Shown here: piece by piece, positions 3,570 through 62,394 of the stretch
Numbering within the stretch: the first letter of the stretch is position 1
Layout: each line of letters opens with the position of its first letter
From: Spartobacteria bacterium
Lineage (GTDB): Bacteria > Verrucomicrobiota > Verrucomicrobiia > Chthoniobacterales > UBA6821
Assembly (NCBI GenBank): GCA_947487385.1
Contig: CANKWU010000011.1
Span: 1 to 62,394 of the forward strand
Direction of reading: 5' to 3'
Length of the DNA stretch: 62,394 bases
Translations under genes and position numbers: made by a program
Notes under the pieces: model-generated
Told to the model about the DNA's origin: nothing
Databases searched by the model: none
The model's input: the letters and a program-made list of their open reading frames with translations, nothing else

Positions 3570-4031
3570 ATGAATCACGAACCGATGCACAAGATCATTA
3601 AACTCAAGCGGTACGAACAACCCCCCGAGGGATACTATCAGGATTTTCTGCACGAGTTTCATAGAAGGCAGCGGGCCGAACTTCTCAACCTGCCGCTCTC
3701 GACCCTAATTATGGAACGCCTATTAGGACTGATCCCGGAGTTCCGCGTTCCCGCCATGGCTTTTGCCGGCGCAGCAGCCGTTGCGATCATCGCAAGTCTA
3801 GCCATCATCCGTGAGACACCGAGAAATGAGATGGCCCGTGCCTATTCGGCCTCTTACACCCCGACCCGTCCTTATTCCCAAGCGCCGGTGACTATCCATA
3901 ATATTCAGCCCGTCTCACTCCGGATTAATATGGATCAGCAAATTCAACCGCAGAATGCATCCACACTCTTTCCTCCATCTTACCTCTTGCAAGCCCGACC
4001 GGTGAGCCATGAATCGCCGCTTAGCTTCTGA
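3570..4031 (+). CDS. Membrane-anchored putative anti-sigma partner
   Basis: A 153-aa protein with a charged cytoplasmic N-terminus (about residues 1-60, including KLKRYEQPPEGYYQDFLHEF), one transmembrane helix at about 63-80 (VPAMAFAGAAAVAIIASLAI) and a proline/glutamine-rich outer tail. I recall similar KRxEQPPxGYF segments in small membrane proteins beside ECF sigma genes in Verrucomicrobiota. The topology and position fit an anti-sigma factor, although no classical zinc anti-sigma motif is present. Its 3' end overlaps the next gene by 23 nt, suggesting coupled translation. Function is inferred from context. Confidence 0.6.
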   Translation: MNHEPMHKIIKLKRYEQPPEGYYQDFLHEFHRRQRAELLNLPLSTLIMERLLGLIPEFRVPAMAFAGAAAVAIIASLAIIRETPRNEMARAYSASYTPTRPYSQAPVTIHNIQPVSLRINMDQQIQPQNASTLFPPSYLLQARPVSHESPLSF

Positions 4032-5091
4032 TCCGGCCTCTCATGGGGTCATGGCATCAGGGCGCCTGAAACGACTGCCGTTACTTTCCCTTCTCACTTT
4101 TTTTGTTGCAGGCTCCGTCACTTCATACGCCAGAGCCTCCAGAGGAGGCTCATCGGGAGACTGGCCCGGGACGTCATCAGGAATGTCCCCACTCTCCTCC
4201 ATGGCCGCCTCGGCGATCAGTAGTGCGAGCATTCAAAGCACAAGAGCGGTTGTCAGGGTACGCGGCTCCGATACCCGTGGTGAACTCAATGGAACAGGTT
4301 TCTTTGTCGATCCTGCAAGCACGATCTGCACAGTTGCCGACCTGGTCAAGGGATCGGACTCCATCGTTATTGTGAAGGATGGAAAGGAGTATCCCTGCAA
4401 TGTTCTGGCTATCGATGAAGGAAGTGGGGCCGCTTTTCTCAAACCCATCGGGGAAATGCCTCACTCCGGAGAAAATTTCTTTTCACCTCGAGCCCTTCCC
4501 ACTCCATCACCCTTCACTCCGGCTCTAGCTATCGGATGTTCCAGAGATAAGGATCCCGCCATCTCGGTTGGAATGATCACGGGAACGAAAAGCCATGAGG
4601 GGGACTTTTATTTCCGTCTGCCGCAGCATATGGCCAAAATCTCCCTCACGGAGGGTGAGGCTGGAGCCCCTGTCTTCGATCTTGATAGGCACCTTATCGG
4701 AATGGTTCTTTCAGGCAACTCACAGGCCGGTGATTGCCGAATCCTACCTGCCGGAGCAATCGAAAAACTCCATACCGATCTACTCCGTTTCGGAAAAATC
4801 AACCAAGGATGGGTCGGTGCGGTGGTGGAGGAAGCTGCTGTGCCTGAGGACAACTCCACCACCCGGATCGCTTCGGTGGAACCGGGTAGCCCCGCCGAAT
4901 CTGCAGGGCTGAAATCCGGAGACATCATTCTTGCGCTTGGCAGCCGACCGATCACTCAGCCCGATAAGCTGCTCGAAGCCTCATTCTATCTCACAGCCGG
5001 TGAGAGCATTCCCATGACCATATGGCGCAGCGGAAAAATCAACCATGTTGTCATCCATTGCGTTAATCCCCCGAAGGCAAACGACCACTAA
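4009..5091 (+). CDS. DegP/HtrA-like pseudoprotease with PDZ domain
   Basis: A 360-aa protein with a signal-like N-terminus (hydrophobic about residues 22-40), a trypsin-like fold of the HtrA family (about 75-260) and one C-terminal PDZ domain (about 267-355, core SPAESAGLKSGDIILALG). The HtrA landmarks align but the catalytic residues do not. The histidine position in TNxH is aspartate (TVAD, residue 111), the catalytic aspartate is glycine (about 140) and the serine of GNSGG is alanine (GEAGAP, about 218). It is therefore probably a periplasmic binding or sensing protein and not a protease. It overlaps the putative anti-sigma gene by 23 nt. An internal start at residue 15 is possible. Confidence 0.8.
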   Translation: MNRRLASDPASHGVMASGRLKRLPLLSLLTFFVAGSVTSYARASRGGSSGDWPGTSSGMSPLSSMAASAISSASIQSTRAVVRVRGSDTRGELNGTGFFVDPASTICTVADLVKGSDSIVIVKDGKEYPCNVLAIDEGSGAAFLKPIGEMPHSGENFFSPRALPTPSPFTPALAIGCSRDKDPAISVGMITGTKSHEGDFYFRLPQHMAKISLTEGEAGAPVFDLDRHLIGMVLSGNSQAGDCRILPAGAIEKLHTDLLRFGKINQGWVGAVVEEAAVPEDNSTTRIASVEPGSPAESAGLKSGDIILALGSRPITQPDKLLEASFYLTAGESIPMTIWRSGKINHVVIHCVNPPKANDH

Positions 5092-51803: not shown

Positions 51804-51829
51804 AAAAAAAAGGCCGGATTACTCCGGCC
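51804..51829 (-). terminator. Terminator of the eight-gene envelope operon
   Basis: On the minus strand GGCCGGA-GTAA-TCCGGCC is followed by eight T, 26 nt after the stop of the last operon gene. A textbook intrinsic terminator. Confidence 0.93.
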
Positions 51830-51855
51830 GTTTTATGAAAGGAGCTGCAACTCCC

Positions 51856-52230
51856 TTAGTTCTTGGGCTTGATTGGCGTGGAGGTAGGAGCCGCAAGAGT
51901 CTCGTTAGTGCCACGAGCTGCCTGCTGGGCTTGGATCTGCTGGGCAAGGTTCTGAACGGCCTGCTGAAGATCGACGAGAGGCACCCAACCTATGAGATTG
52001 CCATTCTGTCCGGTGGCCTTGTCAGCGAAAGAGGCAGCGTTCAGCAGTCGAGCCTCACCGGTCTTGGTGTTCCACTGGACAACGGAATCAACCTGCTTTT
52101 CAGCGATAGTAATCTTGGCTGATATGCATTGGAAGGTGGGTTGCTCGACAGAGGCGGTGGTGCTCTTTTCATTGCAACCGGTCAATACAAGGGCGACGGC
52201 TGCAAGGAGGGTCAATAATGTATACTTCAT
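51856..52230 (-). CDS. Small lipoprotein of unknown function
   Basis: A 124-aa protein with a lipoprotein signal (TLLTLLAAVALVLTGC, cysteine at about residue 18). The mature part (FQCISAKITIAEKQVDSVVQWNTKTGEARLL-like region, then VDLQQAVQNLAQQIQAQQAARG) ends in a Thr/Pro-rich tail. ATG 52230 was chosen because the signal peptide begins there. Last gene of the envelope operon, 76 nt after the PpiC gene and directly before a strong terminator. I do not recognise a family. Confidence 0.75.
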   Translation of the reverse strand: MKYTLLTLLAAVALVLTGCNEKSTTASVEQPTFQCISAKITIAEKQVDSVVQWNTKTGEARLLNAASFADKATGQNGNLIGWVPLVDLQQAVQNLAQQIQAQQAARGTNETLAAPTSTPIKPKN

Positions 52231-52306
52231 AAGATATTGAATGTAGGGGCTTACCTTTAGGATCTCAACTGAAAATAAATAGTAACGAGAAGCAGATTTA
52301 AAGGGT

Positions 52307-53215
52307 CTATTTGGCCTTGGTGTCCTTGGTGTCGATGAGTTTGGAAACTTCGATCTCATTCAAGGTCACGGGATTTTGTTGGAGCAGTTTGGCCAGATAT
52401 GTCTTGGCCAGAGCCTGTGCCTTTTCTTTGCGAAGTTCGTTGGTCAGGGAGACCTTCACCTCATCGAGGGTGGCGGTGTAGGGATCCTTGACCTCAAGAA
52501 CCCGAATGATGTGCCAACCGTCATTCATCCGGACCGGATCGCTTGTTCCGTTCTTGGGGAGCGAGGAGACAGCGGAGCGAATCTCAGGCTGGATCTGTGT
52601 CTCACCGATCGACCCCAGATCCCCACCGCGCTGGACGCTGGCCTGGTCCTCGCTCTGGGACTTGGCCACGGTGCTAAAATCACCGTTCTTGAGGGCCTTC
52701 TGCACGGAGTCGAGTTTGGACTGGGCCCTATCCTCCGTGGCTTTATCAGCCCCCTTGGGGCAAGCGATGTAGATCTGGGCAAGATGATATTGTTTCGGGA
52801 CCTGAAGGGCGTTGTTCTTCTTCAGAATTTCGTAGGCAGCTTCTAGGTCGGACTGCGAGGGGAAGTCCTGAGGAGGAATCGCCTGAGACTGAAGATAGGA
52901 CTGGGTAATTGCCTGTTGACGAATACGATCAAGCTCTGCGGTGATCTGGGGTTGTTGCTCCCATTTCTTGGAGAGTGCTTCCTTGAAGACGAGCTGCTGG
53001 ATGATGAGTTCGCGGACAAGGTTATTGAGCGCAGTAGGATCCTTAGAGAGCGTTAGCTGATCGCGAAGCGGGAGCTTCTCGATAAGGGGCCTGATGTCGT
53101 CGGCCTTCACTTCGCTATCGCCAACCTTCGCGATAACTGTGGTGTCCGCCTGTGAGGGTGAGGTGAAACCGAGGATGCTGAAAGCGATGAGGGGGATAAT
53201 CTTAAGAAAGTTCAT
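52307..53215 (-). CDS. Periplasmic PpiC/SurA-type peptidyl-prolyl isomerase
   Basis: A 302-aa chaperone-like protein: signal peptide (about residues 1-23), SurA-type N-terminal helical region (VGDSEVKADDIRPLIEKLP to about 120), a parvulin domain (about 140-245, QYHLAQIYIACP, GGDLGSIGETQIQPEI, DGWHIIRVLEV) and a helical tail. Such proteins assist folding of outer-membrane barrels, which suits an operon encoding a porin and a POTRA-barrel protein. Spacer of 68 nt from the coiled-coil gene; the start is preceded by a pyrimidine-rich tract. Confidence 0.88.
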   Translation of the reverse strand: MNFLKIIPLIAFSILGFTSPSQADTTVIAKVGDSEVKADDIRPLIEKLPLRDQLTLSKDPTALNNLVRELIIQQLVFKEALSKKWEQQPQITAELDRIRQQAITQSYLQSQAIPPQDFPSQSDLEAAYEILKKNNALQVPKQYHLAQIYIACPKGADKATEDRAQSKLDSVQKALKNGDFSTVAKSQSEDQASVQRGGDLGSIGETQIQPEIRSAVSSLPKNGTSDPVRMNDGWHIIRVLEVKDPYTATLDEVKVSLTNELRKEKAQALAKTYLAKLLQQNPVTLNEIEVSKLIDTKDTKAK

Positions 53216-53283
53216 AATGGAGAGGAAATGTGTGGTTGGAGCTGTTAGATAGCGGTTGAGAGGTTTTCGTTCAAAAAATCGGC

Positions 53284-53982
53284 TTAGTCTTGCTTCTTTG
53301 CGGAGCTGGCAGCATCCCCTGTCTTGGCTGTGGCGAGGTTATCCGGCTTGATGGTCTGATCAGTTAACTTATTTTGGTAATCCTGAAGAAGGGTCTGGAA
53401 CTTCACTTTTGTGATCCCGACAAAGGGCTCACGAGCCGAGATTGCCGTCCCGAGTCCGAATTGGGCGTAGCGGTCGAGCACCTCGTTGCCAAGACGATAC
53501 ATCTCGGCATTCTTCACCTGCTGTTCGGCGATGCGGCGATCAAGCAGGATGATTTTGGAAGCTATTTCGGCACGCTTTCCCTCGGTGGCCTTCGCGTACT
53601 CGGCAAGCTTGGCATAGCCGAGCTTCCACTTGGCAAGTGATTCGGTGAGGTGGTTCACCTGAAGTTCCGAGGCTGTTAGTTTTGTCTTGAGATCATCAAT
53701 GGTCTCGTTGGCGGCTTTCTTTTCGGCGGAAGACTTTTTGGTCAGTTCTTCAAACTGTCCCTGGAGTTCCTTCAGCTTCTCCTCAGTCTCCGCCTGGGCG
53801 GTCTGCACTGTTGCAATTTTTGCATTGGCATCACGAAGCTGGATCATCGTGTTGCGGATGGTCTCCCTCATTTTCTGCTCGGCGGGGTTAACACCTTTTT
53901 TTTCCGCAGCTCCTGCAGAGGCAGCGATCATAAGTGAGAGCCCCATTAGCAGGTAGTGGAGGATTGTGTGGTTCGTCTTCAT
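53284..53982 (-). CDS. Secreted coiled-coil protein
   Basis: A 232-aa protein with a signal peptide (about residues 1-25) followed by a long predicted coiled coil (about 35-155, with ETEEKLKELQGQFEELTKKS) and a C-terminal part containing LGNEVLDRYAQFGLGTAISA and VKFQTLLQDYQNKL. Probably periplasmic. Its position 12 nt after the porin gene suggests it works with the porin or the TonB system, perhaps as a spacer or anchoring protein. No named family recognised. Confidence 0.75.
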   Translation of the reverse strand: MKTNHTILHYLLMGLSLMIAASAGAAEKKGVNPAEQKMRETIRNTMIQLRDANAKIATVQTAQAETEEKLKELQGQFEELTKKSSAEKKAANETIDDLKTKLTASELQVNHLTESLAKWKLGYAKLAEYAKATEGKRAEIASKIILLDRRIAEQQVKNAEMYRLGNEVLDRYAQFGLGTAISAREPFVGITKVKFQTLLQDYQNKLTDQTIKPDNLATAKTGDAASSAKKQD

Positions 53983-53994
53983 GTCGGGATCTGG

Positions 53995-56241
53995 TTAGAA
54001 TCTGGAGTTAATATCCAGCTGAATAATGTCAGCCTTGTACTGTGGACCGGCAATTCCCGTTGCGCTGAGCCAGCGCATCCCGATGAAGACACTCTTGGAA
54101 AGGGCAAGGTTGCCACCCACCGAAAATCCCTTGAGGTTGGTGCCTCCTCCTCCGAAGTCGGAATCACAGAAGCCGTCGATCACGGCGTCTGACTCAACGT
54201 AGCGATAAGCGACACCAAAGTCCCAATCCCATCGTTTCTGAAGGGCCCCGGATCCGATCTTTGTCTGGACGATCCAGGCATTGTTTCCCCCGCCGTAACC
54301 CGTTCCATCAGATCCGGGATTGTTAATGTTACCCTTGAGCTGAGTAGGGCCATTGTTTGCAATGTTCTGAGCATTCCATGCAAGGTTTTGATCCCATTCT
54401 CCGGAGAGTGAAATAACAAACGGCTCCCAATGTCGGTACTCAAGGCGGGCATTTGCCGAGAGGATCTGGAATGGAGTGGAGAGACCGAAGTATTGGAATT
54501 GGTTGATCGTACCATCTTCATTACCTCCCTGCGCCGCTGAGCCAGGAACAGCTGGTATTTCTCGCAGGGCCATGTAGGTGTTTCCTTTCTGGGAAAAGGT
54601 GGGTCGGCTGTCATCCGTACTAAACTGAGTGTTTTGGTCGTATGCAACTTGAGAGTCTGACACCTGCCCCTGAACATTTTGAAAGTTGTAGTACCCAACA
54701 GATCCCTTGTAGTAGAGATCCTTGGTGATCTTCCAATCGATTCCCGTCTGCGCAGCATAGAGATACTTGTCATAACTAGATACTTTAGGTTGCTGTTGAG
54801 CTGGAAAATTCAAGTCGGTGTTGAAAATTGGAAAAATTCCTGCTGTAGCAAAGGGTGTCATTCCTTTGAAGACCTTATACCTCGCCTGCGCAGCGATACC
54901 ATCAAAGGCGATATCATTAGCCCACATGATGGTGGTGGGGGTGTAGAATGGGTTATCAAAGCGTCCAAAGGTAATGGCAGCCATCCGATCAGGGTCATCA
55001 CCCAGTTCGTATTTCAGGAAGGCGCGATCCAGCCAGATGGCGTAGTTGCTGAAATTACCACCTGCCCCTCCAAATTGTCCATTATTCGCAGCCCCAAGGG
55101 TCTGATTTTCCGAAACTGGACTTCCGTTCTGACCAGTGCCAAGTCGAAATCCGCCAGTGAAGTTATCCCCAAGGTTCATATCCGCACCAAAGCGGAATCG
55201 GATACGCATCTGTTGACGATTTTGGGTCGTATCGTACGTCGGATAACCGATGGGAGGAGACTGGTTTCCGTTAGCCTGTGAGATATTGAATGGCTGCCCC
55301 GTGTTGATGGCGTTGAAGTTCAGGGTGTCTAGCGGATTATCGGAATTCCCATCTGGAAAATAGATCCCCTGGTAACGGAAGCGGAAATCCATGAAGGGCC
55401 GGAACTTTTTGGTCCACTCCGGCACGTTGGATTGAGCCCATCCCTCGGATTGGGCGGCCGCGATGACGTCCCGTTTGATCTCATCGCGCATCTCCGACTT
55501 CACGATCTCGGGGACATAGGAGACGCTGACCGCCTCGTCGGAAGAGGGAGGGGCCGCGGCTTCCATGGCCATCTGCTGGGCAGTTGCCGCCTGGGTGGCG
55601 GCCTGCTGGGCAACCTGGGACTGCTGGGATGCACGCTGTGCATCTTCCTTCGCCTGACGAATGAGATCACCGGCATCTTCTTTCGTGAGAATGCCCCGTT
55701 GGACGAGACGATTGATGAGGTTCAGAGTGACATTCTCGGACGGTGTAACCGGAGGTGGAGCGGAAGCCGCCATCACATCGGGAGGTTGGTCCAGGTTCGG
55801 AGGCTGGTCGATCGGAAGACTTGGAGCAGCGGCTTGGGACTTTGCACCGACCGGTTGGACATCCTTGAGTGAAGCATCCTTTATCGGGGCATCCTTGGGC
55901 TGAGCATCCTTTGTCGGCGCTGCTTCCTGCGTGCTTAGGCTTGGAGCAGCGGCGGCCGGATTAGCCATTGTGGGAGAGGGAGGGACAGCTGGGTCCACCG
56001 CAATCGGAGGGACGCTCGATACGGCTGCCACTGCCTCAGCCATGGCTGCCGTATCAGCTGTAAGGGAAGGTTGACTGACTTGTGAAGCAGCTAAAGGGGA
56101 GGCTGAGGATGCAGGGGATACAGGCTCGGGAGCAAAGAGATCATCTGCACCACGTGCCGTGATCGTAGCCAAGATCAGCAGGAGCAAAATTCCGGGGAAC
56201 ACCGGGAACTTTGTCATCAATGAATGGATAGTTCGAACCAT
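53995..56241 (-). CDS. Large putative porin with coiled-coil N-terminus
   Basis: A 748-aa outer-membrane protein. The N-terminal signal (about residues 8-30) is followed by a long Ala/Pro-rich linker, a helical segment (LINRLVQRGILTKEDAGDL, then a coiled coil about 195-235), and from about 270 a repeated amphipathic-strand barrel rich in aromatic residues that ends in LDINSRF, the terminal-aromatic signature of outer-membrane barrels. It resembles the 'putative porin' family of PVC and related bacteria. Lies 33 nt after tonB and 12 nt before the coiled-coil gene. Confidence 0.85.
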   Translation of the reverse strand: MVRTIHSLMTKFPVFPGILLLLILATITARGADDLFAPEPVSPASSASPLAASQVSQPSLTADTAAMAEAVAAVSSVPPIAVDPAVPPSPTMANPAAAAPSLSTQEAAPTKDAQPKDAPIKDASLKDVQPVGAKSQAAAPSLPIDQPPNLDQPPDVMAASAPPPVTPSENVTLNLINRLVQRGILTKEDAGDLIRQAKEDAQRASQQSQVAQQAATQAATAQQMAMEAAAPPSSDEAVSVSYVPEIVKSEMRDEIKRDVIAAAQSEGWAQSNVPEWTKKFRPFMDFRFRYQGIYFPDGNSDNPLDTLNFNAINTGQPFNISQANGNQSPPIGYPTYDTTQNRQQMRIRFRFGADMNLGDNFTGGFRLGTGQNGSPVSENQTLGAANNGQFGGAGGNFSNYAIWLDRAFLKYELGDDPDRMAAITFGRFDNPFYTPTTIMWANDIAFDGIAAQARYKVFKGMTPFATAGIFPIFNTDLNFPAQQQPKVSSYDKYLYAAQTGIDWKITKDLYYKGSVGYYNFQNVQGQVSDSQVAYDQNTQFSTDDSRPTFSQKGNTYMALREIPAVPGSAAQGGNEDGTINQFQYFGLSTPFQILSANARLEYRHWEPFVISLSGEWDQNLAWNAQNIANNGPTQLKGNINNPGSDGTGYGGGNNAWIVQTKIGSGALQKRWDWDFGVAYRYVESDAVIDGFCDSDFGGGGTNLKGFSVGGNLALSKSVFIGMRWLSATGIAGPQYKADIIQLDINSRF

Positions 56242-56274
56242 GAGAATTGTGTCTTAATGAGTGTTGGAAAGAAA

Positions 56275-56952
56275 TTAGCCGGGACGCTTTGCGTTGAATT
56301 TCATCACGATCGGCATCGGCATGCCCTGAGGGGGCGGTTCGCTCAGCACGACATCGGCCAGCACCTCGTTCTTGATCGCGGCATCCAGTTCCGGGTTTCC
56401 GGTGGATTGCGCAAGGGTTACTTTGCTGATGCGACCCGTGCTATCCGCCCAGACGCGCACTTGGACGCACATGACGGCGCTTCGTGTCTTCTTGTGTGAT
56501 CGGAGGGCCTCGGCCACACGGGTCTGCACCTTGCCGGCATACCAGCCGTATTTGCTGCCTCCGCCACCGCCTTTACCGCCGAAGCCGTTACCACCCATGC
56601 CACCGCCGTTACCGGCGGCAAGACCCGAGGCATCATTACCCTGAATGCTGGTGCTCAAGGGAGCGGCTTCCGGTTCGGGAGCTTTGTCTGGCGGCTTCTC
56701 CTCGCTCGGGGCCTCCTCTTTCTGGAATTTCGGCTCCTCCGGCTTCGGAGGTTCCTGCTTCGGTGGTGGCGGCGGTGGCGGCGGTGGTGGAGGTGGGAGA
56801 CTCACCATCCTGACCTCATTCTTAGGGGCGGGTGCACTCTCCTCACCATCGGAATGGAAGAGGAAGAAGGCGGCAACGCCAGCAACAAGCACAATACCGC
56901 CGATGATGAGCGGCAGGGGGGACTTTTTCTCTTGTTGGGAGTTGTCAGCCAT
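56275..56952 (-). CDS. tonB: TonB-type energy transducer
   Basis: A 225-aa inner-membrane protein: one N-terminal helix (about residues 13-31), a proline-rich spacer with a run of 12 prolines (about 52-63) and Pro/Glu repeats, a Gly-rich stretch (about 112-132), and a C-terminal TonB/TolA-like domain (about 135-225, YAGKVQTRVAEALRSHKK, VQVRVWADSTGRISKVTL). It should carry motor energy to the outer membrane. No TonB-dependent receptor gene is present nearby. It is 39 nt after exbD. Confidence 0.9.
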   Translation of the reverse strand: MADNSQQEKKSPLPLIIGGIVLVAGVAAFFLFHSDGEESAPAPKNEVRMVSLPPPPPPPPPPPPKQEPPKPEEPKFQKEEAPSEEKPPDKAPEPEAAPLSTSIQGNDASGLAAGNGGGMGGNGFGGKGGGGGSKYGWYAGKVQTRVAEALRSHKKTRSAVMCVQVRVWADSTGRISKVTLAQSTGNPELDAAIKNEVLADVVLSEPPPQGMPMPIVMKFNAKRPG

Positions 56953-56991
56953 GTAAGTGGAAGATGGAGTGTCGGTTAAAGAGGAATGGAA

Positions 56992-57393
56992 CTATTGACG
57001 CTTCTGGGTAGCCAGACCGACCTTCTCCATGCCGATGCGCCCGATCACATCGAGAACATCCATGACCCCCTGATACTGAGTGGCACTGTCTCCACGTACT
57101 ACGACTGGTGTGTCAGGATTGGCCGATTTGGCCTCCTGAAGCTTCTGCTCAAGTTCGGGAAGGGTTACTGGAAGAGTATTAAGAAAGATCGCTCCCTCGG
57201 TGTTCACGGTCACGGCCTGAGTCTTAGGACCACCCATGCTGGGCGCGGAACTCCCCTTGGGAAGGTTCACCTTCACCCCCTGAATGCCGGCGCTGGTCAT
57301 AATGATAAAGATCAGCAGGAGAACTAGGTAGAGATCGACCATCGGCGTGACATTGATGTCGGCGATTGCTTCTCCTCCGGAGTCGGCTTGCAT
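56992..57393 (-). CDS. exbD: ExbD/TolR-type proton channel subunit
   Basis: A 133-aa ExbD-family protein with one transmembrane helix (about residues 18-36, INVTPMVDLYLVLLLIFIIM) containing the conserved proton-carrying aspartate of the PMVD motif, and a periplasmic domain (VNLPKG, VVVRGDSATQYQGVMDVLD). Works with ExbB to use the proton gradient. Between exbB (37 nt) and tonB (39 nt). Confidence 0.94.
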   Translation of the reverse strand: MQADSGGEAIADINVTPMVDLYLVLLLIFIIMTSAGIQGVKVNLPKGSSAPSMGGPKTQAVTVNTEGAIFLNTLPVTLPELEQKLQEAKSANPDTPVVVRGDSATQYQGVMDVLDVIGRIGMEKVGLATQKRQ

Positions 57394-57430
57394 GGCAGGT
57401 CAGTAGGTTAGGTTGAAAAGACGGTCCCTC

Positions 57431-59299
57431 TTAGTGGGATGATCCTCCGGCACTTTTATCCGGATAATTCTCAGCCATCTTGGTGATGAACTCCTCCACA
57501 AAGAGGTGCAGATCAGTCGTGATGTCCTTCACCTGAACACTCAGGTAATTATATCCGAAGAGTGCTGGAATGGCGACCACAAGGCCCGCCACAGTAGCAA
57601 GCAATGCCGCTGCAATACCTGGGGCGATGGCATTGATATCAACCTCCCCCAACATCGCGATCTCACCAAAGGTAATCATAACCCCGATGATCGTACCAAG
57701 CAGTCCGACGTAGGGTCCACCGGCGATACAAATCGTGAGGAGCACCATCATGCTACCCAGTTTCGATGACTCACGCGTGATCTGACCCTCCATCACTGAC
57801 TCAATGGTTTCAATAGCGCGGTGGCTCAGTCCATTATTCAAGCCCTCTTTTGTGCGCTGACGGATCTCACCACAACCAAGATGATACACCCTGTAGATCG
57901 GTGTTGAGTGAATGAACCGGATGTGAGCCGGATCAGCCAATCCCCCAAGTGAGGCGATCTTCTCAGCATCATCGGTATCAAGGGCCGTGATGTCCTTGGA
58001 AAGATGGTGCCACTGATTGGTGAACTCCTTGGAGCCTCGGGCAAGGCTTGCGATGTAGCGGTACTTCACCACCATTACGAACCAGCTGATGGCCGACATG
58101 ATACCCAAGATACCTATTACCACCCACGCATCGACCGTGACTGATTTGATCAGATAGCCGAAAAGGCCCAAGCTATCCAAGAAGCTGACCTTGGCTGGCT
58201 CTGGCTTGCCGGCTACGAGAAGCTTCGCGTTCTGCTGGCCCTGACCCAGCGCCGCGAGCTTAATCAAGGCGGCGCTTCTCGCGCTCTTGGAGATCTCCAT
58301 TTCGTCGATCTCACCGCCGAAAGAGCCTTTCCCCTCCTCCCCGCCAATGAATGCGGGACCATTCAGGGCGGGCATGGCGACAGGCAGATTGGCCACAGCA
58401 TTACCGTCCACATAGAGCGTCGTGCGGGTGCCATCTGAGACCATGGCAAGATGCTTCCATGTGCCGGCGGCCAGAGGAGCCGCAGGGGCCGAGCGCTGGG
58501 TACCAGTGGGACCTATGATCTCGAAGAAAGGAGCTCCATTGTCGAGGCCGATTTTCAAGGCTGAAGATCCATCCTTGCGACTGTACAGGATTGATTCAGG
58601 TGCAAGGACGGTGGGCTTAACCCAGCACATCCATGTGAAGGGGGCAGCCTCGAGAACAGCGGCGTTGGGATTGGCTGCGATACTGATCGGCTTCTTGCCG
58701 TCGAGCTTAATACCGCCTCCTATCATCGAGCCCTCAACAGGAATTCCCGGTGTCTCTGCCCTCACACCTTCGCCAGAGGAGTCTCCGGGAGGAGTTCCAT
58801 GCTCGTTGAAATGATAGACGGTAATGGTGTCGGCATCGTAGGCGGTCTTGGGCAGGTCGGTCTTCTCACCCTTGGCAGGCTTCTTCTTCTCATTGCGAGC
58901 CGAGTAGAGGTAGATGTCACGCGCGGCTCCGGCCTTGACGTCCGGGATCTTCACCCAGACGAAGCCCTCGTTCATCACCGGGTCGAATTTCTCGATTTGG
59001 GAGGCGAGCATGGTCTTGTCATCGCTGTCCACGAAGCGGATATCGCTCCCATCCTCCTTAGCCGAGGCGAAGTCGAAGTTCCCGTCATGAAGCCTCACGA
59101 CGACCGTGGCAGTGCCGGCCGCATCGGGAAGAGAGACACCATTGTCGGAGGTGTCGACGGTGAACTTGGTACGGGTGCCCCAGGCCTCGTTCCACCAGGT
59201 GCGGGCTTCAAGAGGCAGGCTGCCCACAATCAAGAGAGCAAAGGTCAGGAACATTGCGGCCCGCTTGGGATTCCGCGATAAGAAGAGGGATGCAGTCAT
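57431..59299 (-). CDS. exbB: ExbB/TolQ proton channel with DUF2341-LamG ectodomain
   Basis: A 622-aa fusion. Signal peptide (about residues 14-32); DUF2341-like domain (about 60-135, VVVRLHDGNFDFASA, FVWVKIPDV); concanavalin A/LamG-like domain (about 155-345, HFNE, FTWMCWVKP, WKHLAMVSDGTRTTLYVDG, GGEIDEMEIS); transmembrane helix (about 390-412); and a MotA/TolQ/ExbB channel region (about 480-600, GLLGTIIGVMITFGEI and a final helix pair). Ordinary ExbB has about 240 residues and no such ectodomain. The extra part should sit in the periplasm, where it may bind a glycan or protein. It starts 36 nt after the POTRA-barrel gene. Confidence 0.92.
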   Translation of the reverse strand: MTASLFLSRNPKRAAMFLTFALLIVGSLPLEARTWWNEAWGTRTKFTVDTSDNGVSLPDAAGTATVVVRLHDGNFDFASAKEDGSDIRFVDSDDKTMLASQIEKFDPVMNEGFVWVKIPDVKAGAARDIYLYSARNEKKKPAKGEKTDLPKTAYDADTITVYHFNEHGTPPGDSSGEGVRAETPGIPVEGSMIGGGIKLDGKKPISIAANPNAAVLEAAPFTWMCWVKPTVLAPESILYSRKDGSSALKIGLDNGAPFFEIIGPTGTQRSAPAAPLAAGTWKHLAMVSDGTRTTLYVDGNAVANLPVAMPALNGPAFIGGEEGKGSFGGEIDEMEISKSARSAALIKLAALGQGQQNAKLLVAGKPEPAKVSFLDSLGLFGYLIKSVTVDAWVVIGILGIMSAISWFVMVVKYRYIASLARGSKEFTNQWHHLSKDITALDTDDAEKIASLGGLADPAHIRFIHSTPIYRVYHLGCGEIRQRTKEGLNNGLSHRAIETIESVMEGQITRESSKLGSMMVLLTICIAGGPYVGLLGTIIGVMITFGEIAMLGEVDINAIAPGIAAALLATVAGLVVAIPALFGYNYLSVQVKDITTDLHLFVEEFITKMAENYPDKSAGGSSH

Positions 59300-59335
59300 G
59301 AGGTTCAGGTAGAATGAGTGGGTGACAGTGAGGTT

Positions 59336-61090
59336 TTAGAACTCGCCGAAAATACGGAAGGTGATCAGTGGGGAATATGCAATCACTGGCTGCTGAGAGA
59401 TCGTTGGGATGCCGACGTCAATGGAGCCGTTGAGGTGGTTGAACATTCGCAGGCGTGAACCAAACCCATAAGACGCCAAGTTGAAAAGGGATGTCTGCCC
59501 AGGGAGGGGATCATTCAAGGTCACCGTGCCACCATCCATGAAACCGTAGAGGCGCCATTCATTAACGCCTAGATGACCGCCGAGCAGGGAAGGACTCCGT
59601 AGCTCAACACTCCCGAATACGGCATTGTCCCCGGCCACGGTCCCCTCGAGATAACCGCGGCAGCTATCGAGTCCGCCTCCGGCAAACTGTTCACTGTAGA
59701 CCAGCGGATTCGGTGAAATTTGACCCTGCGCTTTCCCGAAAATCTGGAATCCGCCGGGAAGATCATGCGTATGGGAGAGATCACCCTTGACGACGAAGAA
59801 CCCACCGTCCGCGTTGTATCGCAGATCTGCAAACTGTTGCTCATTGCCATAGGTCCCCATGTTATAGACAGGAAGGATCGCCCCTCGGATTCCGAAAGAG
59901 ATACCTGCATCGAAGATCGTCACCGAGTTCTTCGGCGCCCATACCGCATTGTAGTTCATGCGAACCGGGGCATAGTCAAGTGGTGTGGGGGGCAACTCCG
60001 CCACCGCAGGATCCACGGTCGTCTGGTTGACCGCCTGATTGAGGTGCTTGAAATCCATGCCGGCGCTGACCGAGTGACTGAAGTCCTTTTCATTAGGAAG
60101 CCCGGCGAGAAAGCGGAAGGCCGCCGTCTGACCAGCGCCGTTGACAGCGGTGCCGCCGAGCGTGGAGACATTGCTGTTCTGCTCTCCGTAAGAGAGGTTC
60201 AGGCGTAGCCAGTCGATCCTAGGAAAGCGGGCCGTGTAAAAGACATTCCAGTTAAGAGCATTCGAGGGATCCTGAGGAGCAACCTGGAAAGAGCCCCCGA
60301 GCGAGTGTCCCAACTGCCAGAGATTGTCGTAGCTCGATGCGAGATTGATGCGGTAGGGAACGGTGTTGGGATTGTAGCGGTTGTTGAACTCCGCGCTCCC
60401 GTGCCATGGAAGGGTATCCTTCACCTGGAGGTTCACATCGACCGTGCCGGGCTCAAAGCCCGGGGTAAGCGTTGGCGTCACCTGCCTGTCGCTCCATTGG
60501 TTGAGGGCCAAGATCTCGCTGGAGACCTTGTTGAAGTCGGGGACTGATCCGGGTTGAAGCGACGGCACCTTTTTCTTGATCGCATCCAGTGAGAAATAGC
60601 GCGCCCCCTCGACATTGAGTCGGCCGATCTTACCCTCCATGACTTGGAGAAAAACTATGCCTCGTTTGCCGGTCTGCTGAGGAATCTGGACATTCACAGT
60701 CTGGAATCCCTTGTCCTGAAAAGCCTTTTCCAGCGCAGCCCTTGCCTGCTCCACATCCTCAGGAGTCCGCTCCGGGCCCATGAAGGGATAGACCGCCTTC
60801 TCGATTTCAGCCCGGTCGAGTTGGTGGGAACCGATCACCCGGAACTCCCGGATGTAGAGCATCTGGCTCCTGTCCACGGCGTTCGTAGAGACTCCGGGTG
60901 GAGTAGCTGCTACCGGAGGAACAGGCGGGGGAACGTCATCAGAGTAAGAGGGCGAAGTTGTCGAGTTCGAGGCCATTAACTGCCATTGTCCCAAACCAGC
61001 CGTGACTACCACACAAAGCAACATCAACTGACAACGCAGAGACGAAGCAGGATGATTTCTTAGCAAAAAATGGAGATGAGATCTTGTCAC
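59336..61090 (-). CDS. ShlB/TpsB-type POTRA-barrel outer-membrane protein
   Basis: A protein of about 584 aa with a signal-like hydrophobic stretch (LMLLCVVVTAGLG), a Pro-rich linker, POTRA domains (including YIREFRVIGSHQLDRAEIEK, then VMEGKIGRLNVEGARYF) and a C-terminal barrel of the haemolysin-activator (ShlB/FhaC) type ending ITFRIFGEF. Such proteins export large TpsA partners, but no TpsA gene is adjacent. The start is uncertain: GTG 61090 gives a basic n-region; ATG 61024 is the alternative. The frame is open up to 61282, but that stretch contains the palindrome and looks non-coding. First gene of the operon. Confidence 0.85.
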   Translation of the reverse strand: MTRSHLHFLLRNHPASSLRCQLMLLCVVVTAGLGQWQLMASNSTTSPSYSDDVPPPVPPVAATPPGVSTNAVDRSQMLYIREFRVIGSHQLDRAEIEKAVYPFMGPERTPEDVEQARAALEKAFQDKGFQTVNVQIPQQTGKRGIVFLQVMEGKIGRLNVEGARYFSLDAIKKKVPSLQPGSVPDFNKVSSEILALNQWSDRQVTPTLTPGFEPGTVDVNLQVKDTLPWHGSAEFNNRYNPNTVPYRINLASSYDNLWQLGHSLGGSFQVAPQDPSNALNWNVFYTARFPRIDWLRLNLSYGEQNSNVSTLGGTAVNGAGQTAAFRFLAGLPNEKDFSHSVSAGMDFKHLNQAVNQTTVDPAVAELPPTPLDYAPVRMNYNAVWAPKNSVTIFDAGISFGIRGAILPVYNMGTYGNEQQFADLRYNADGGFFVVKGDLSHTHDLPGGFQIFGKAQGQISPNPLVYSEQFAGGGLDSCRGYLEGTVAGDNAVFGSVELRSPSLLGGHLGVNEWRLYGFMDGGTVTLNDPLPGQTSLFNLASYGFGSRLRMFNHLNGSIDVGIPTISQQPVIAYSPLITFRIFGEF

Positions 61091-61416
61091 AATGACCGGT
61101 TGCCCTCTTTTGTTAACGGTGCAAATACCAATGTAATTTATCAGATCCCTTGAGAGGGAAGGAATACATAATTGTGACGATTTCGTCACATTACACGGGG
61201 TAAACATTCCAAAAAGTCCGACAAGCTGCATTTTTACCACAACGCCGAATGCCCGCCTGGACACGGAGACAGCCAAGGACATGGAAAGGTTTCCCGAAAA
61301 GGAACTGAGTAGGGAAGACGGAGGTCGAGGGCTTGACCTGTGTTACCGATGTCCTGACCCGTGCCCCCCGTGCCGCACTCCATCTATTCTCTATCTTCCG
61401 ACATGAAACCTTCTAC
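61091..61416. other. Intergenic control region upstream of the envelope operon
   Basis: 326 bases between the rmuC stop and the chosen start of the POTRA-barrel gene. It holds an 18-bp palindrome (61173-61190), a small TCCCT/AGGGA hairpin near 61145-61158 and a further TTGTCACAATGAC half-site at 61084-61096. I see no gene; a minus-strand frame is open from 61282 but lacks conserved content. Confidence 0.5.
61173..61190. promoter_or_regulatory. 18-bp perfect palindrome, probable operator
   Basis: TGTGACGA-TT-TCGTCACA is symmetrical over all 18 positions. It lies 82 nt before the chosen start of the envelope operon, and a related TGTGAC half-site lies at the start codon. The symmetry suggests a dimeric regulator; the spacing differs from the TGTGA-N6-TCACA of CRP. 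Confidence 0.6.
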
Positions 61417-62394
61417 TTAATCAGCTTCCTCGTTCTTGAGCAGATCTTCGAATCCGATGGCCTCAATAGTAGAGGGCTGACCGGGAAGAGTCTCCACATT
61501 ACGGAGGCTGCGTTCGATGGCCCGAGAACGGGTGCCGACCGACTCGATCTTGTTACTGGCTTCCAAGAGCTTCTTTTTCACAGCGTCCAAGGAGTCACCG
61601 AATTTGGCGAACTCAGCCTTCACATCGCTAAGCGTCTTCCAGACCTCGCTTGACTGCTTCTGGATCGTGAGTGTCTTGAAGCCCATCTGGAGACTGTTCA
61701 AAAGCGCGGCGAAGGTCGTGGGGCCTGCCAGAACGACTCGGTGCTTGCCCTGCAAATCCTCGATGACTCCCGGAATGCGAATGATCTCGGCAAAAAGTCC
61801 CTCGGTCGGTACGAACATGACACCGAAGTCGGTAGTGTGGGGGGGATTGAGGTATTTGGAGGAGATGTCCTTGGCACACTTGAGGACGGCGTCACGCAGT
61901 GCCTTAGTCGATTCCTCGATAGCAACAAGATCGGCTCTCTCCTGGGCCTCGTGAAGGCGCTTGAAGTCCTCAATAAAGAACTTGGCATCCACAGGCAGCC
62001 AGACGACGGAATCATCCTCTCCCTTGCCGGGGAGCTTGATCGCGTACTCGACGATCTCCCCGGAGGCGGGGTTCGTCTTCACGTTCTTCTCGTACTGCGC
62101 CGGCGTGAGCATCTGCTCCAGCAACGCTCCGAGCTGGACTTCTCCCCAACCGCCGCGTGTCTTAACATTGGTGAGGACTTTCTTGAGGTCGCCAACACCA
62201 ATGGCGAGGTTCTGCATCTCGCCGAGTCCGCGGTGCACCTGCTCAAGGCGATCGGAAACCTGCTTGAAGGATTCCCCAAGGCGCTTCTCCAGGGTCCCCT
62301 GGAGCTTCTCGTCAACAGTGCGGCGCATCTCCTCAAGGCGGAGGGCGTTGTCATCACGGAGCTCTTTGAGCTTGGTCTCCATGGTGGCGCGGAT
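61417..62394 (-). CDS. rmuC: DNA recombination protein RmuC (partial)
   Basis: The C-terminal 325 codons of an RmuC-family protein; the frame stays open through the window edge, and family members are about 400-500 aa with an N-terminal anchor and coiled coil. Visible are the coiled-coil end (KRLGESFKQVSDRLEQVHRG) and the PF02646 domain with NVKTRGGWGEVQLGALLEQML, VVWLPVDAKFFIEDFKRL and FVPTEGLFAEI. RmuC limits certain inversions and is a nuclease-like protein linked to DNA repair. Confidence 0.93.
   Translation of the reverse strand: MRATMETKLKELRDDNALRLEEMRRTVDEKLQGTLEKRLGESFKQVSDRLEQVHRGLGEMQNLAIGVGDLKKVLTNVKTRGGWGEVQLGALLEQMLTPAQYEKNVKTNPASGEIVEYAIKLPGKGEDDSVVWLPVDAKFFIEDFKRLHEAQERADLVAIEESTKALRDAVLKCAKDISSKYLNPPHTTDFGVMFVPTEGLFAEIIRIPGVIEDLQGKHRVVLAGPTTFAALLNSLQMGFKTLTIQKQSSEVWKTLSDVKAEFAKFGDSLDAVKKKLLEASNKIESVGTRSRAIERSLRNVETLPGQPSTIEAIGFEDLLKNEEAD

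What the first reader, a model, noticed from the sequence alone, without database searches (positions are those of the whole stretch)
51804..61190. Eight-gene TonB-ExbBD operon built around a POTRA barrel and a porin, not a TonB receptor
Seen: eight same-strand genes with spacers of 12-76 nt, a perfect palindrome before the first and a strong terminator after the last. Order: ShlB-type POTRA barrel, DUF2341-LamG-ExbB, ExbD, TonB, large coiled-coil porin, coiled-coil periplasmic protein, PpiC isomerase, lipoprotein. Known: ExbB/ExbD/TonB normally energise 22-strand receptors with plug and TonB box; ShlB proteins normally export an adjacent TpsA; neither partner is present. Inference: the operon may encode a self-contained energised outer-membrane transport or export machine in which TonB acts on the porin or POTRA barrel, with the isomerase helping barrel folding.
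Basis: partly seen in the sequence, partly recalled or inferred. Interest (0 to 1): 0.78.

Follow-up and report, generated by a model that had tools for sequence, protein, structure and literature searches.

The report
Two-partner secretion operon with TonB motor
This gene cluster from a freshwater Verrucomicrobia relative is a widespread but little-studied secretion locus for giant proteins that nearly always comes with its own ion-driven TonB motor and a porin, which raises the question of what that motor pulls on when the usual TonB receptor is missing.

Summary
The eight genes are real and the order is conserved: 72 of 75 distinct loci with enough flank keep TpsB, DUF2341-LamG-ExbB, ExbD, TonB, Porin_5 and the coiled-coil protein together, in Verrucomicrobiota and some Pseudomonadota. 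The claim that no secreted partner exists fails. In most relatives a giant TpsA (about 3,900 aa) lies beside the operon; it occurs in 65 of 70 sampled genomes with the full-length porin and 2 of 127 without. The window's genome keeps its last 161 residues at another contig's end. A PstS-like binding protein travels with the set (59 of 70 versus 4 of 127). The locus matches the published, uncharacterised Pseudomonas aeruginosa pdtB-exbB2-exbD2-tonB4-PA0696..PA0699 cluster. The one TonB receptor found in the genome has its own motor. The porin is predicted as a 16-strand OmpM1-like barrel with a conserved TonB-box-like peptide in a disordered linker. Best guess: TonB acts on this porin to take up a ligand, perhaps phosphorus-containing, captured by TpsA; energised TpsA export is the main rival. 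The mechanism is inferred, not shown.

The parts
59336..61024 (-). TpsB-like outer-membrane transporter (POTRA_2 + ShlB barrel); reading frame open to 61282, start codon uncertain
   Evidence: Pfam; AlphaFold model mean pLDDT 83.6, nearest solved folds CdiB 6wim and FhaC 4ql0/4qky; invariant R458-G459 in alignment A4; sequence 61000-61440 read
57431..59299 (-). DUF2341 + Laminin_G_3 region fused to an ExbB/TolQ-type channel
   Evidence: Pfam; both parts in 85 of 87 distinct loci with enough flank; ExbB signature GL[LF]GT in 87 of 88
56992..57393 (-). ExbD
   Evidence: Pfam; 89 of 92 loci; P-x-x-D motif in 91 of 93
56275..56952 (-). TonB (TonB_2 C-terminal domain, proline-rich linker)
   Evidence: Pfam; 94 of 97 loci
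53995..56241 (-). Porin_5 outer-membrane porin with long N-terminal extension
55558..55743 (-). Predicted N-terminal helices of the porin (stalk-like)
   Evidence: model residues 18-79
55510..55539 (-). TonB-box-like peptide DEAVSVSYVP of the porin, in a low-confidence (disordered) linker
   Evidence: motif in 105 of 112 operon porins, 0 of 21 weak Porin_5 paralogues
53284..53982 (-). Coiled-coil protein with signal-like N-terminus
   Evidence: 106 of 107 loci
52307..53215 (-). PpiC-type peptidyl-prolyl isomerase
   Evidence: Pfam; 50 of 92 loci
51856..52230 (-). Small lipoprotein, restricted to the window's clade
   Evidence: recognised in 5 of 112 distinct loci
51812..51829 (-). Terminator-like hairpin with T tail
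61173..61190 (.). Perfect 18-nt palindrome, not found in congeners

Best explanation
The operon is the outer-membrane and motor half of a two-partner secretion locus of the kind known from the Pseudomonas aeruginosa pdt (PUMA3/VreI) region. TpsB is expected to export a giant TpsA encoded nearby in relatives and, in this genome, on another contig. A dedicated ExbB-ExbD-TonB motor is nearly always kept with a 16-strand porin and a coiled-coil protein, and, in this order of Verrucomicrobiota, usually with a PstS-like binding protein in the genome. Shown by computation: gene content, order, co-occurrence with TpsA and the binding protein, conserved motor motifs, the porin fold, a conserved peptide in a disordered porin linker, and a separate motor for the one TonB receptor found. 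Inferred: TpsA is displayed at the surface and captures a ligand, by analogy with HxuA. TonB pairs with the porin's linker peptide and uses the ion gradient to open or cycle the porin (or to release TpsA-bound ligand), so that the ligand, perhaps phosphorus-containing, enters and is bound by the PstS-like protein. I put the identity at about 0.95 and the porin-directed uptake mechanism at about 0.4.
For: Order conserved in 72 of 75 loci. In Pseudomonadota 14 of 398 sampled genomes, the Reyranella centre included, have the full porin, and 14 of their 15 places have LamG-ExbB and ExbD beside it. Giant TpsA in 65 of 70 genomes with the porin, 2 of 127 without. TpsA fragment in the own genome. A plasmid record annotated by others, Methylosinus sp. 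C49, shows the same set with STN, sigma-factor and FecR genes (PUMA3-like) just upstream; Bradyrhizobium and Reyranella have STN+TonB_2 and FecR genes. Published P. aeruginosa order and co-regulation. The one TonB receptor found in the genome has its own motor. Porin box 105 of 112, with an acidic residue within three before it in 101, none in 5,600 shuffled sequences; it lies in a low-pLDDT linker. PstS-like protein: 59 of 70 versus 4 of 127 genomes, profile matches PstS structures at E 2e-5. PA0690, PA0696 and PA0698 are among the proteins most raised under phosphate limitation in P. aeruginosa. OprO/OprP are among the listed fold matches.
Against: No interaction or transport was tested. The box differs from classical TonB boxes (as recalled) by its invariant proline, and 7 of 112 porins do not match the pattern: Methylosinus, Bradyrhizobium, Cupriavidus, Variovorax and Aquabacterium loci, the motorless Methylomagnum locus, and one broken frame. 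In L129 the motor genes lie roughly 28 kb from the porin; in L279 (Pseudomonadota) and L189 (Methylomagnum) no motor genes were found beside the porin, not followed up. The PstS-like protein is poorly recognised by Pfam (1 of 13 members matches PBP_like_2), was not found in 11 of 70 porin genomes, and lies within 30 kb of porin or TpsA in 41 of 60 genomes tested of 63. OmpM1 and general porins fit the fold better than OprP. Transposon mutants of PA0690, PA0692, PA0695 and PA0696 showed no loss of zebrafish virulence in VreI-induced P. aeruginosa, which says nothing on uptake.
Confidence: 0.5

Rival explanations
1. Energised secretion: TonB-ExbBD drives or resets TpsB (or a TpsB-porin complex) so that giant 3,600-4,200-residue TpsA proteins can be exported, with the coiled-coil protein and PpiC as periplasmic chaperones.
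For: The motor genes follow tpsB directly in most loci. One machine may serve several TpsA genes: two in G057 and G036, four DUF3739 proteins in Reyranella. A PpiC isomerase with a weak SurA_N_3 match below cut-off. In the model the window's TpsB leader between signal helix and POTRA1 is unstructured, and leaders are mostly short (median 28.5 residues in 36 of 37, rough estimate); no helix is seen where, as recalled, FhaC has its plug helix.
Against: A review holds that no energy source drives type V translocation (PMC5422565 passages). It leaves the porin and the PstS-like protein unexplained. The conserved disordered peptide is in the porin.
Confidence: 0.3
2. Envelope attachment: the porin is an OmpM-like tether whose stalk contacts the coiled-coil protein, LamG region or TonB, and the operon mainly organises or anchors TpsA at the outer membrane.
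Against: No SLH match by Pfam at E up to 1. An ion-driven motor is not needed for a static tether. The full-length porin is tied to TpsA rather than universal in the order.
Confidence: 0.15
3. Tol-Pal-like envelope maintenance: the ExbB/ExbD pair is a TolQR-type motor.
For: Best NCBIfam matches are tolQ and tolR.
Against: Both matches are below the curated cut-offs; no TolB or Pal match in the eight proteins; the full-length porin and giant TpsA are both missing from 125 of 197 genomes of the order.
Confidence: 0.04

Closest known systems
Pseudomonas aeruginosa pdtB-exbB2-exbD2-tonB4-PA0696-PA0697-PA0698-PA0699 with pdtA (PUMA3/VreI regulon)
   Same: Same order TpsB, ExbB, ExbD, TonB, putative porin, unknown protein, PpiC, with a TpsA nearby (PMC2729926, PMC7035377, PMC4971064 passages). 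Relatives in Burkholderia, Cupriavidus, Variovorax, Methylosinus and Bradyrhizobium match our profiles.
   Different: The window's nearest neighbours are rmuC and a GATase gene, and no YbjN match is in the operon, whereas P. aeruginosa has PA0698 (YbjN) and the vre genes in the region. The PstS-like family was found here in Verrucomicrobiota; it was not looked for in P. aeruginosa. P. aeruginosa sequences themselves were not compared.
Hxu system (HxuA, HxuB, HxuC) of Haemophilus influenzae
   Same: Two-partner secretion pair plus a TonB-energised outer-membrane channel; the authors suggest a TonB-powered dissociation step (PMC4873976 passages).
   Different: HxuC is a TonB-dependent receptor; here the channel is a predicted 16-strand porin, and the TpsA is about 3,900 aa.
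OmpM1 attachment porin of Veillonella
   Different: No SLH match; 15% identity over aligned residues; operon context not compared.
ExbB-like A subunits with DUF2341 appendages
   Same: Domain named as an N-terminal appendage of unknown function (PMC12505986 passages).
   Different: That paper does not link it to two-partner secretion or a porin in the passages seen; the word porin does not occur in its text.

Membership tests
Two-partner secretion (type Vb) | TpsB with POTRA domains and FhaC-type barrel | tested here: met
   Pfam; model with CdiB and FhaC as nearest folds; RG motif invariant
Two-partner secretion (type Vb) | Cognate TpsA with N-terminal TPS domain | tested here: inconclusive
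   In relatives 67 of 70 genomes with the porin have a TPS domain. In the own genome only the last 161 aa of a TpsA at a contig end, no TPS domain
Two-partner secretion (type Vb) | TpsB exports TpsA | not testable with these tools
   needs experiment
P. aeruginosa pdt/PUMA3-type locus | Gene order TpsB-ExbB-ExbD-TonB-porin-unknown-(YbjN)-PpiC | tested here: met
   window against the published order; YbjN absent from the window operon; named proteobacterial loci
P. aeruginosa pdt/PUMA3-type locus | Sequence similarity to the P. aeruginosa proteins themselves | not tested
   no P. aeruginosa sequence was fetched
P. aeruginosa pdt/PUMA3-type locus | VreA/VreI/VreR-like regulators beside the operon | not tested
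   window flanks not fully scanned; STN, sigma factor and FecR annotated in Methylosinus, STN and FecR found in Bradyrhizobium and Reyranella loci
TonB-dependent receptor (22 strands, plug) | Plug domain and 22-strand barrel in the operon's channel | tested here: not met
   no Plug match in any operon protein at E up to 1; 16 long strands in the model
OmpM family | SLH domain plus 16-strand barrel | tested here: not met
   barrel fold matches but no SLH match at E up to 1
TonB box | Conserved short hydrophobic peptide in a flexible N-terminal segment that binds TonB | tested here: inconclusive
   conserved and in a disordered linker; binding not tested; invariant proline is unlike recalled TonB boxes
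PstS phosphate-binding protein (accessory) | Family profile match | tested here: inconclusive
   profile matches PstS chains at E 2e-5 over about 100 residues; Pfam PBP_like_2 in 1 of 13

The most novel reading that the evidence does not exclude
A TonB-driven outer-membrane machine whose TonB partner is not a 22-strand receptor but a 16-strand OmpM-like porin with a TonB-box-like peptide in its N-terminal linker, working with a giant two-partner-secretion protein; this would extend TonB dependence to a second class of barrels and give type V secretion loci an energy input.
Probability: 0.4. Interest if true: 0.85.

Novelty: new member of a known kind. Interest (0 to 1): 0.6.

Why it matters
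Two-partner secretion is described as needing no energy source, and TonB as acting on 22-strand receptors. Here is a set kept together across two phyla in which a two-partner secretion pair is coupled genetically to its own ion-driven motor and to a porin. It was seen in P. aeruginosa in 2009 and its motor was still called uncharacterised in 2020. The wide verrucomicrobial distribution, the porin peptide, the PstS-like partner and a genome with a separate motor for the one TonB receptor found make the question of what TonB pulls on directly testable.

Tried and rejected
Rejected: no TpsA partner (TpsA adjacent in most relatives, fragment in own genome). Rejected: the motor serves a distant TonB receptor (the one receptor found has its own exbB-exbD-tonB). 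Rejected: L129 lacks the motor (it lies roughly 28 kb away on a contig of the same length, near its TpsA). Not resolved: L279 and L189, porins without motor genes beside them. Rejected as support: the palindrome (in none of six informative congener loci). Corrected on the way: a note put TpsA 20-45 kb upstream in congeners; that was the distance to its N-terminal domain, and its 3' end is about 4 kb from tpsB in G057 and G036. Led nowhere: Porin_5 profile against PDB sequences (one OmpW match at E 0.034); one weak paralogue against PDB (none). Paper searches listed no paper that by title and start of abstract describes this operon in Verrucomicrobia; of those listings only PMC12505986 was opened. 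TonB receptors do not appear among the 50 listed fold matches of the porin, which does not exclude them.

Dropped rows: one search counted as full-length porin the 70 genomes whose match included the N-terminal part or was cut by a contig (E 3e-33 or better); weaker matches were put with the rest. Giant-type TpsA was sorted by eye (long or contig-cut frames). The 63 TpsA lengths leave out shorter, mostly contig-cut frames and one of 4,942 aa. One search left three genomes with the binding protein but no porin (G011, G117, G125) out of the distance count. One search removed duplicate loci by the last 300 aa of the porin. Seven of eleven plasmid hits were fetched. Fisher values ignore kinship of genomes.

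Full report
Observation. Families were confirmed by Pfam. The palindrome and terminator are there, but the palindrome was in none of 11 congener entries, six of them distinct and informative.

Conservation. A family search for Porin_5 over 197 genomes of the order matched 125, of which I counted 70 as full-length type. Sixty loci were fetched and annotated with profiles grown from the window proteins. A scan of genome contigs returned the best 80 named loci, nearly all Verrucomicrobiota, plus Reyranella, Bradyrhizobium and a few other records with non-verrucomicrobial names. With seven plasmid loci these make 112 distinct loci. Where the contig reaches far enough, TonB is present in 94 of 97, ExbD in 89 of 92, LamG and ExbB each in 85 of 87, TpsB in 76 of 78, the coiled-coil protein in 106 of 107, PpiC in 50 of 92, and the six-gene core in 72 of 75. 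The loci were selected for the porin, so these are conditional counts. The porin tree (quick method, midpoint root) keeps the verrucomicrobial rows together, with alphaproteobacterial ones next to them.

TpsA. In L165 and most other loci a giant frame with a TPS domain follows the coiled-coil or PpiC gene: 58 of 81 loci with at least 4.5 kb downstream. Pfam finds TPS near the N-terminus and DUF3739 near the C-terminus of a 3,934-aa protein of G057. Sixty-three listed long frames have a median of 3,898 aa, range 3,602-4,222 (lengths typed). Over the order, giant-type TpsA occurs in 65 of 70 genomes with the full porin and 2 of 127 without. In the window's genus its 3' end lies about 4 kb upstream of tpsB in G057 and G036. 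The window's contig ends 1.1-1.4 kb upstream of the operon. The own genome gave no TPS domain, but its contig C37 ends inside a frame whose 161 residues are 88% identical to the C-terminus of a congener's TpsA. So a partner gene exists in part and the assembly cut it.

Accessory binding protein. A protein family whose profile matches PstS structures occurs in 59 of 70 genomes with the porin and 4 of 127 without, and lies within 30 kb of porin or TpsA in 41 of 60 genomes tested of 63. Pfam recognises it poorly.

Known relatives. The P. aeruginosa PUMA3 region has the same order (passages read in PMC2729926, PMC7035377 and PMC4971064). The 2020 paper calls exbB2-exbD2-tonB4 a still uncharacterised putative TonB system and PA0696-PA0700 of unknown function. 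PA0690, PA0696 and PA0698 rise by about 6 log2 units under phosphate limitation (PMC9769906 passages). The Methylosinus plasmid carries annotated STN, sigma-factor and FecR genes beside the operon; Bradyrhizobium and Reyranella loci carry STN and FecR genes. In Pseudomonadota 14 of 398 sampled genomes have the full porin; 14 of their 15 places have LamG-ExbB and ExbD beside it, and at the exception (L279) only TpsB and the coiled-coil gene were recognised beside it. Paper searches for the verrucomicrobial form listed nothing that describes it.

TpsB. The model (mean pLDDT 83.6) reads as two POTRA-like units and a barrel of about 16 strands, nearest to CdiB and FhaC. After the signal helix the window's leader is unstructured, and leaders in relatives are mostly short by a rough estimate; there is no helix where, as I recall, FhaC has its plug helix.

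Reading. The identity of the locus is well supported. For the mechanism, the porin peptide, the PstS-like protein and the phosphate link of the P. aeruginosa locus favour a TonB-gated porin that takes up a ligand caught by TpsA, comparable with HxuABC (PMC4873976 passages). Energised export of TpsA remains open and is the main rival. Every mechanistic step is inference.

Noticed in passing
L188 3572-5247 and 11334-12354 (Klebsiella pneumoniae plasmid): The tpsB-like and ppiC-like frames each appear as two overlapping pieces, so these genes look broken in this record; described only.
   Followed up: no
L097 5167-11400 (G084): Several operon genes are split into short frames in one genome, with in-frame stops in the porin match; decay or sequencing error.
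   Followed up: no
L165 2080-3171: A gene that by eye looks like an integrase lies upstream of the porin in a record named Bacteroidetes; the porin tree puts it, L148 (named Betaproteobacteria) and L104 (named Proteobacteria) among Verrucomicrobiota rows, so the names are probably wrong.
   Followed up: partly
L144 genome (Reyranella, G198): Four DUF3739 giant frames of 3,740-4,006 aa and one full-length Porin_5 in one genome, so one machine may serve several TpsA proteins.
   Followed up: partly
L041 2078-3320 and L098 1717-2950: A small DUF2292 protein (L041) and a protein of about 290 aa without Pfam match sit between the PstS-like gene and tpsB in the window's genus.
   Followed up: no
L129 16428-21709: Several PstS-like frames in a row downstream of the coiled-coil gene.
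   Followed up: no
L189 15887-17626 (Methylomagnum plasmid): A full-length porin without motor genes beside it, next to cax and phoU and close to a TpsB-TpsA pair; its peptide lacks the VxV part but keeps YVPE.
   Followed up: partly
L279 5436-9900 (unnamed Pseudomonadota genome; coordinates after turning the locus): TpsB, porin and coiled-coil gene together, with no motor genes recognised in the 18 kb held.
   Followed up: no
window 61417-62394: rmuC lies just upstream of tpsB here but was not found in the congener stretches searched (26 loci given), so the flank may be rearranged.
   Followed up: partly
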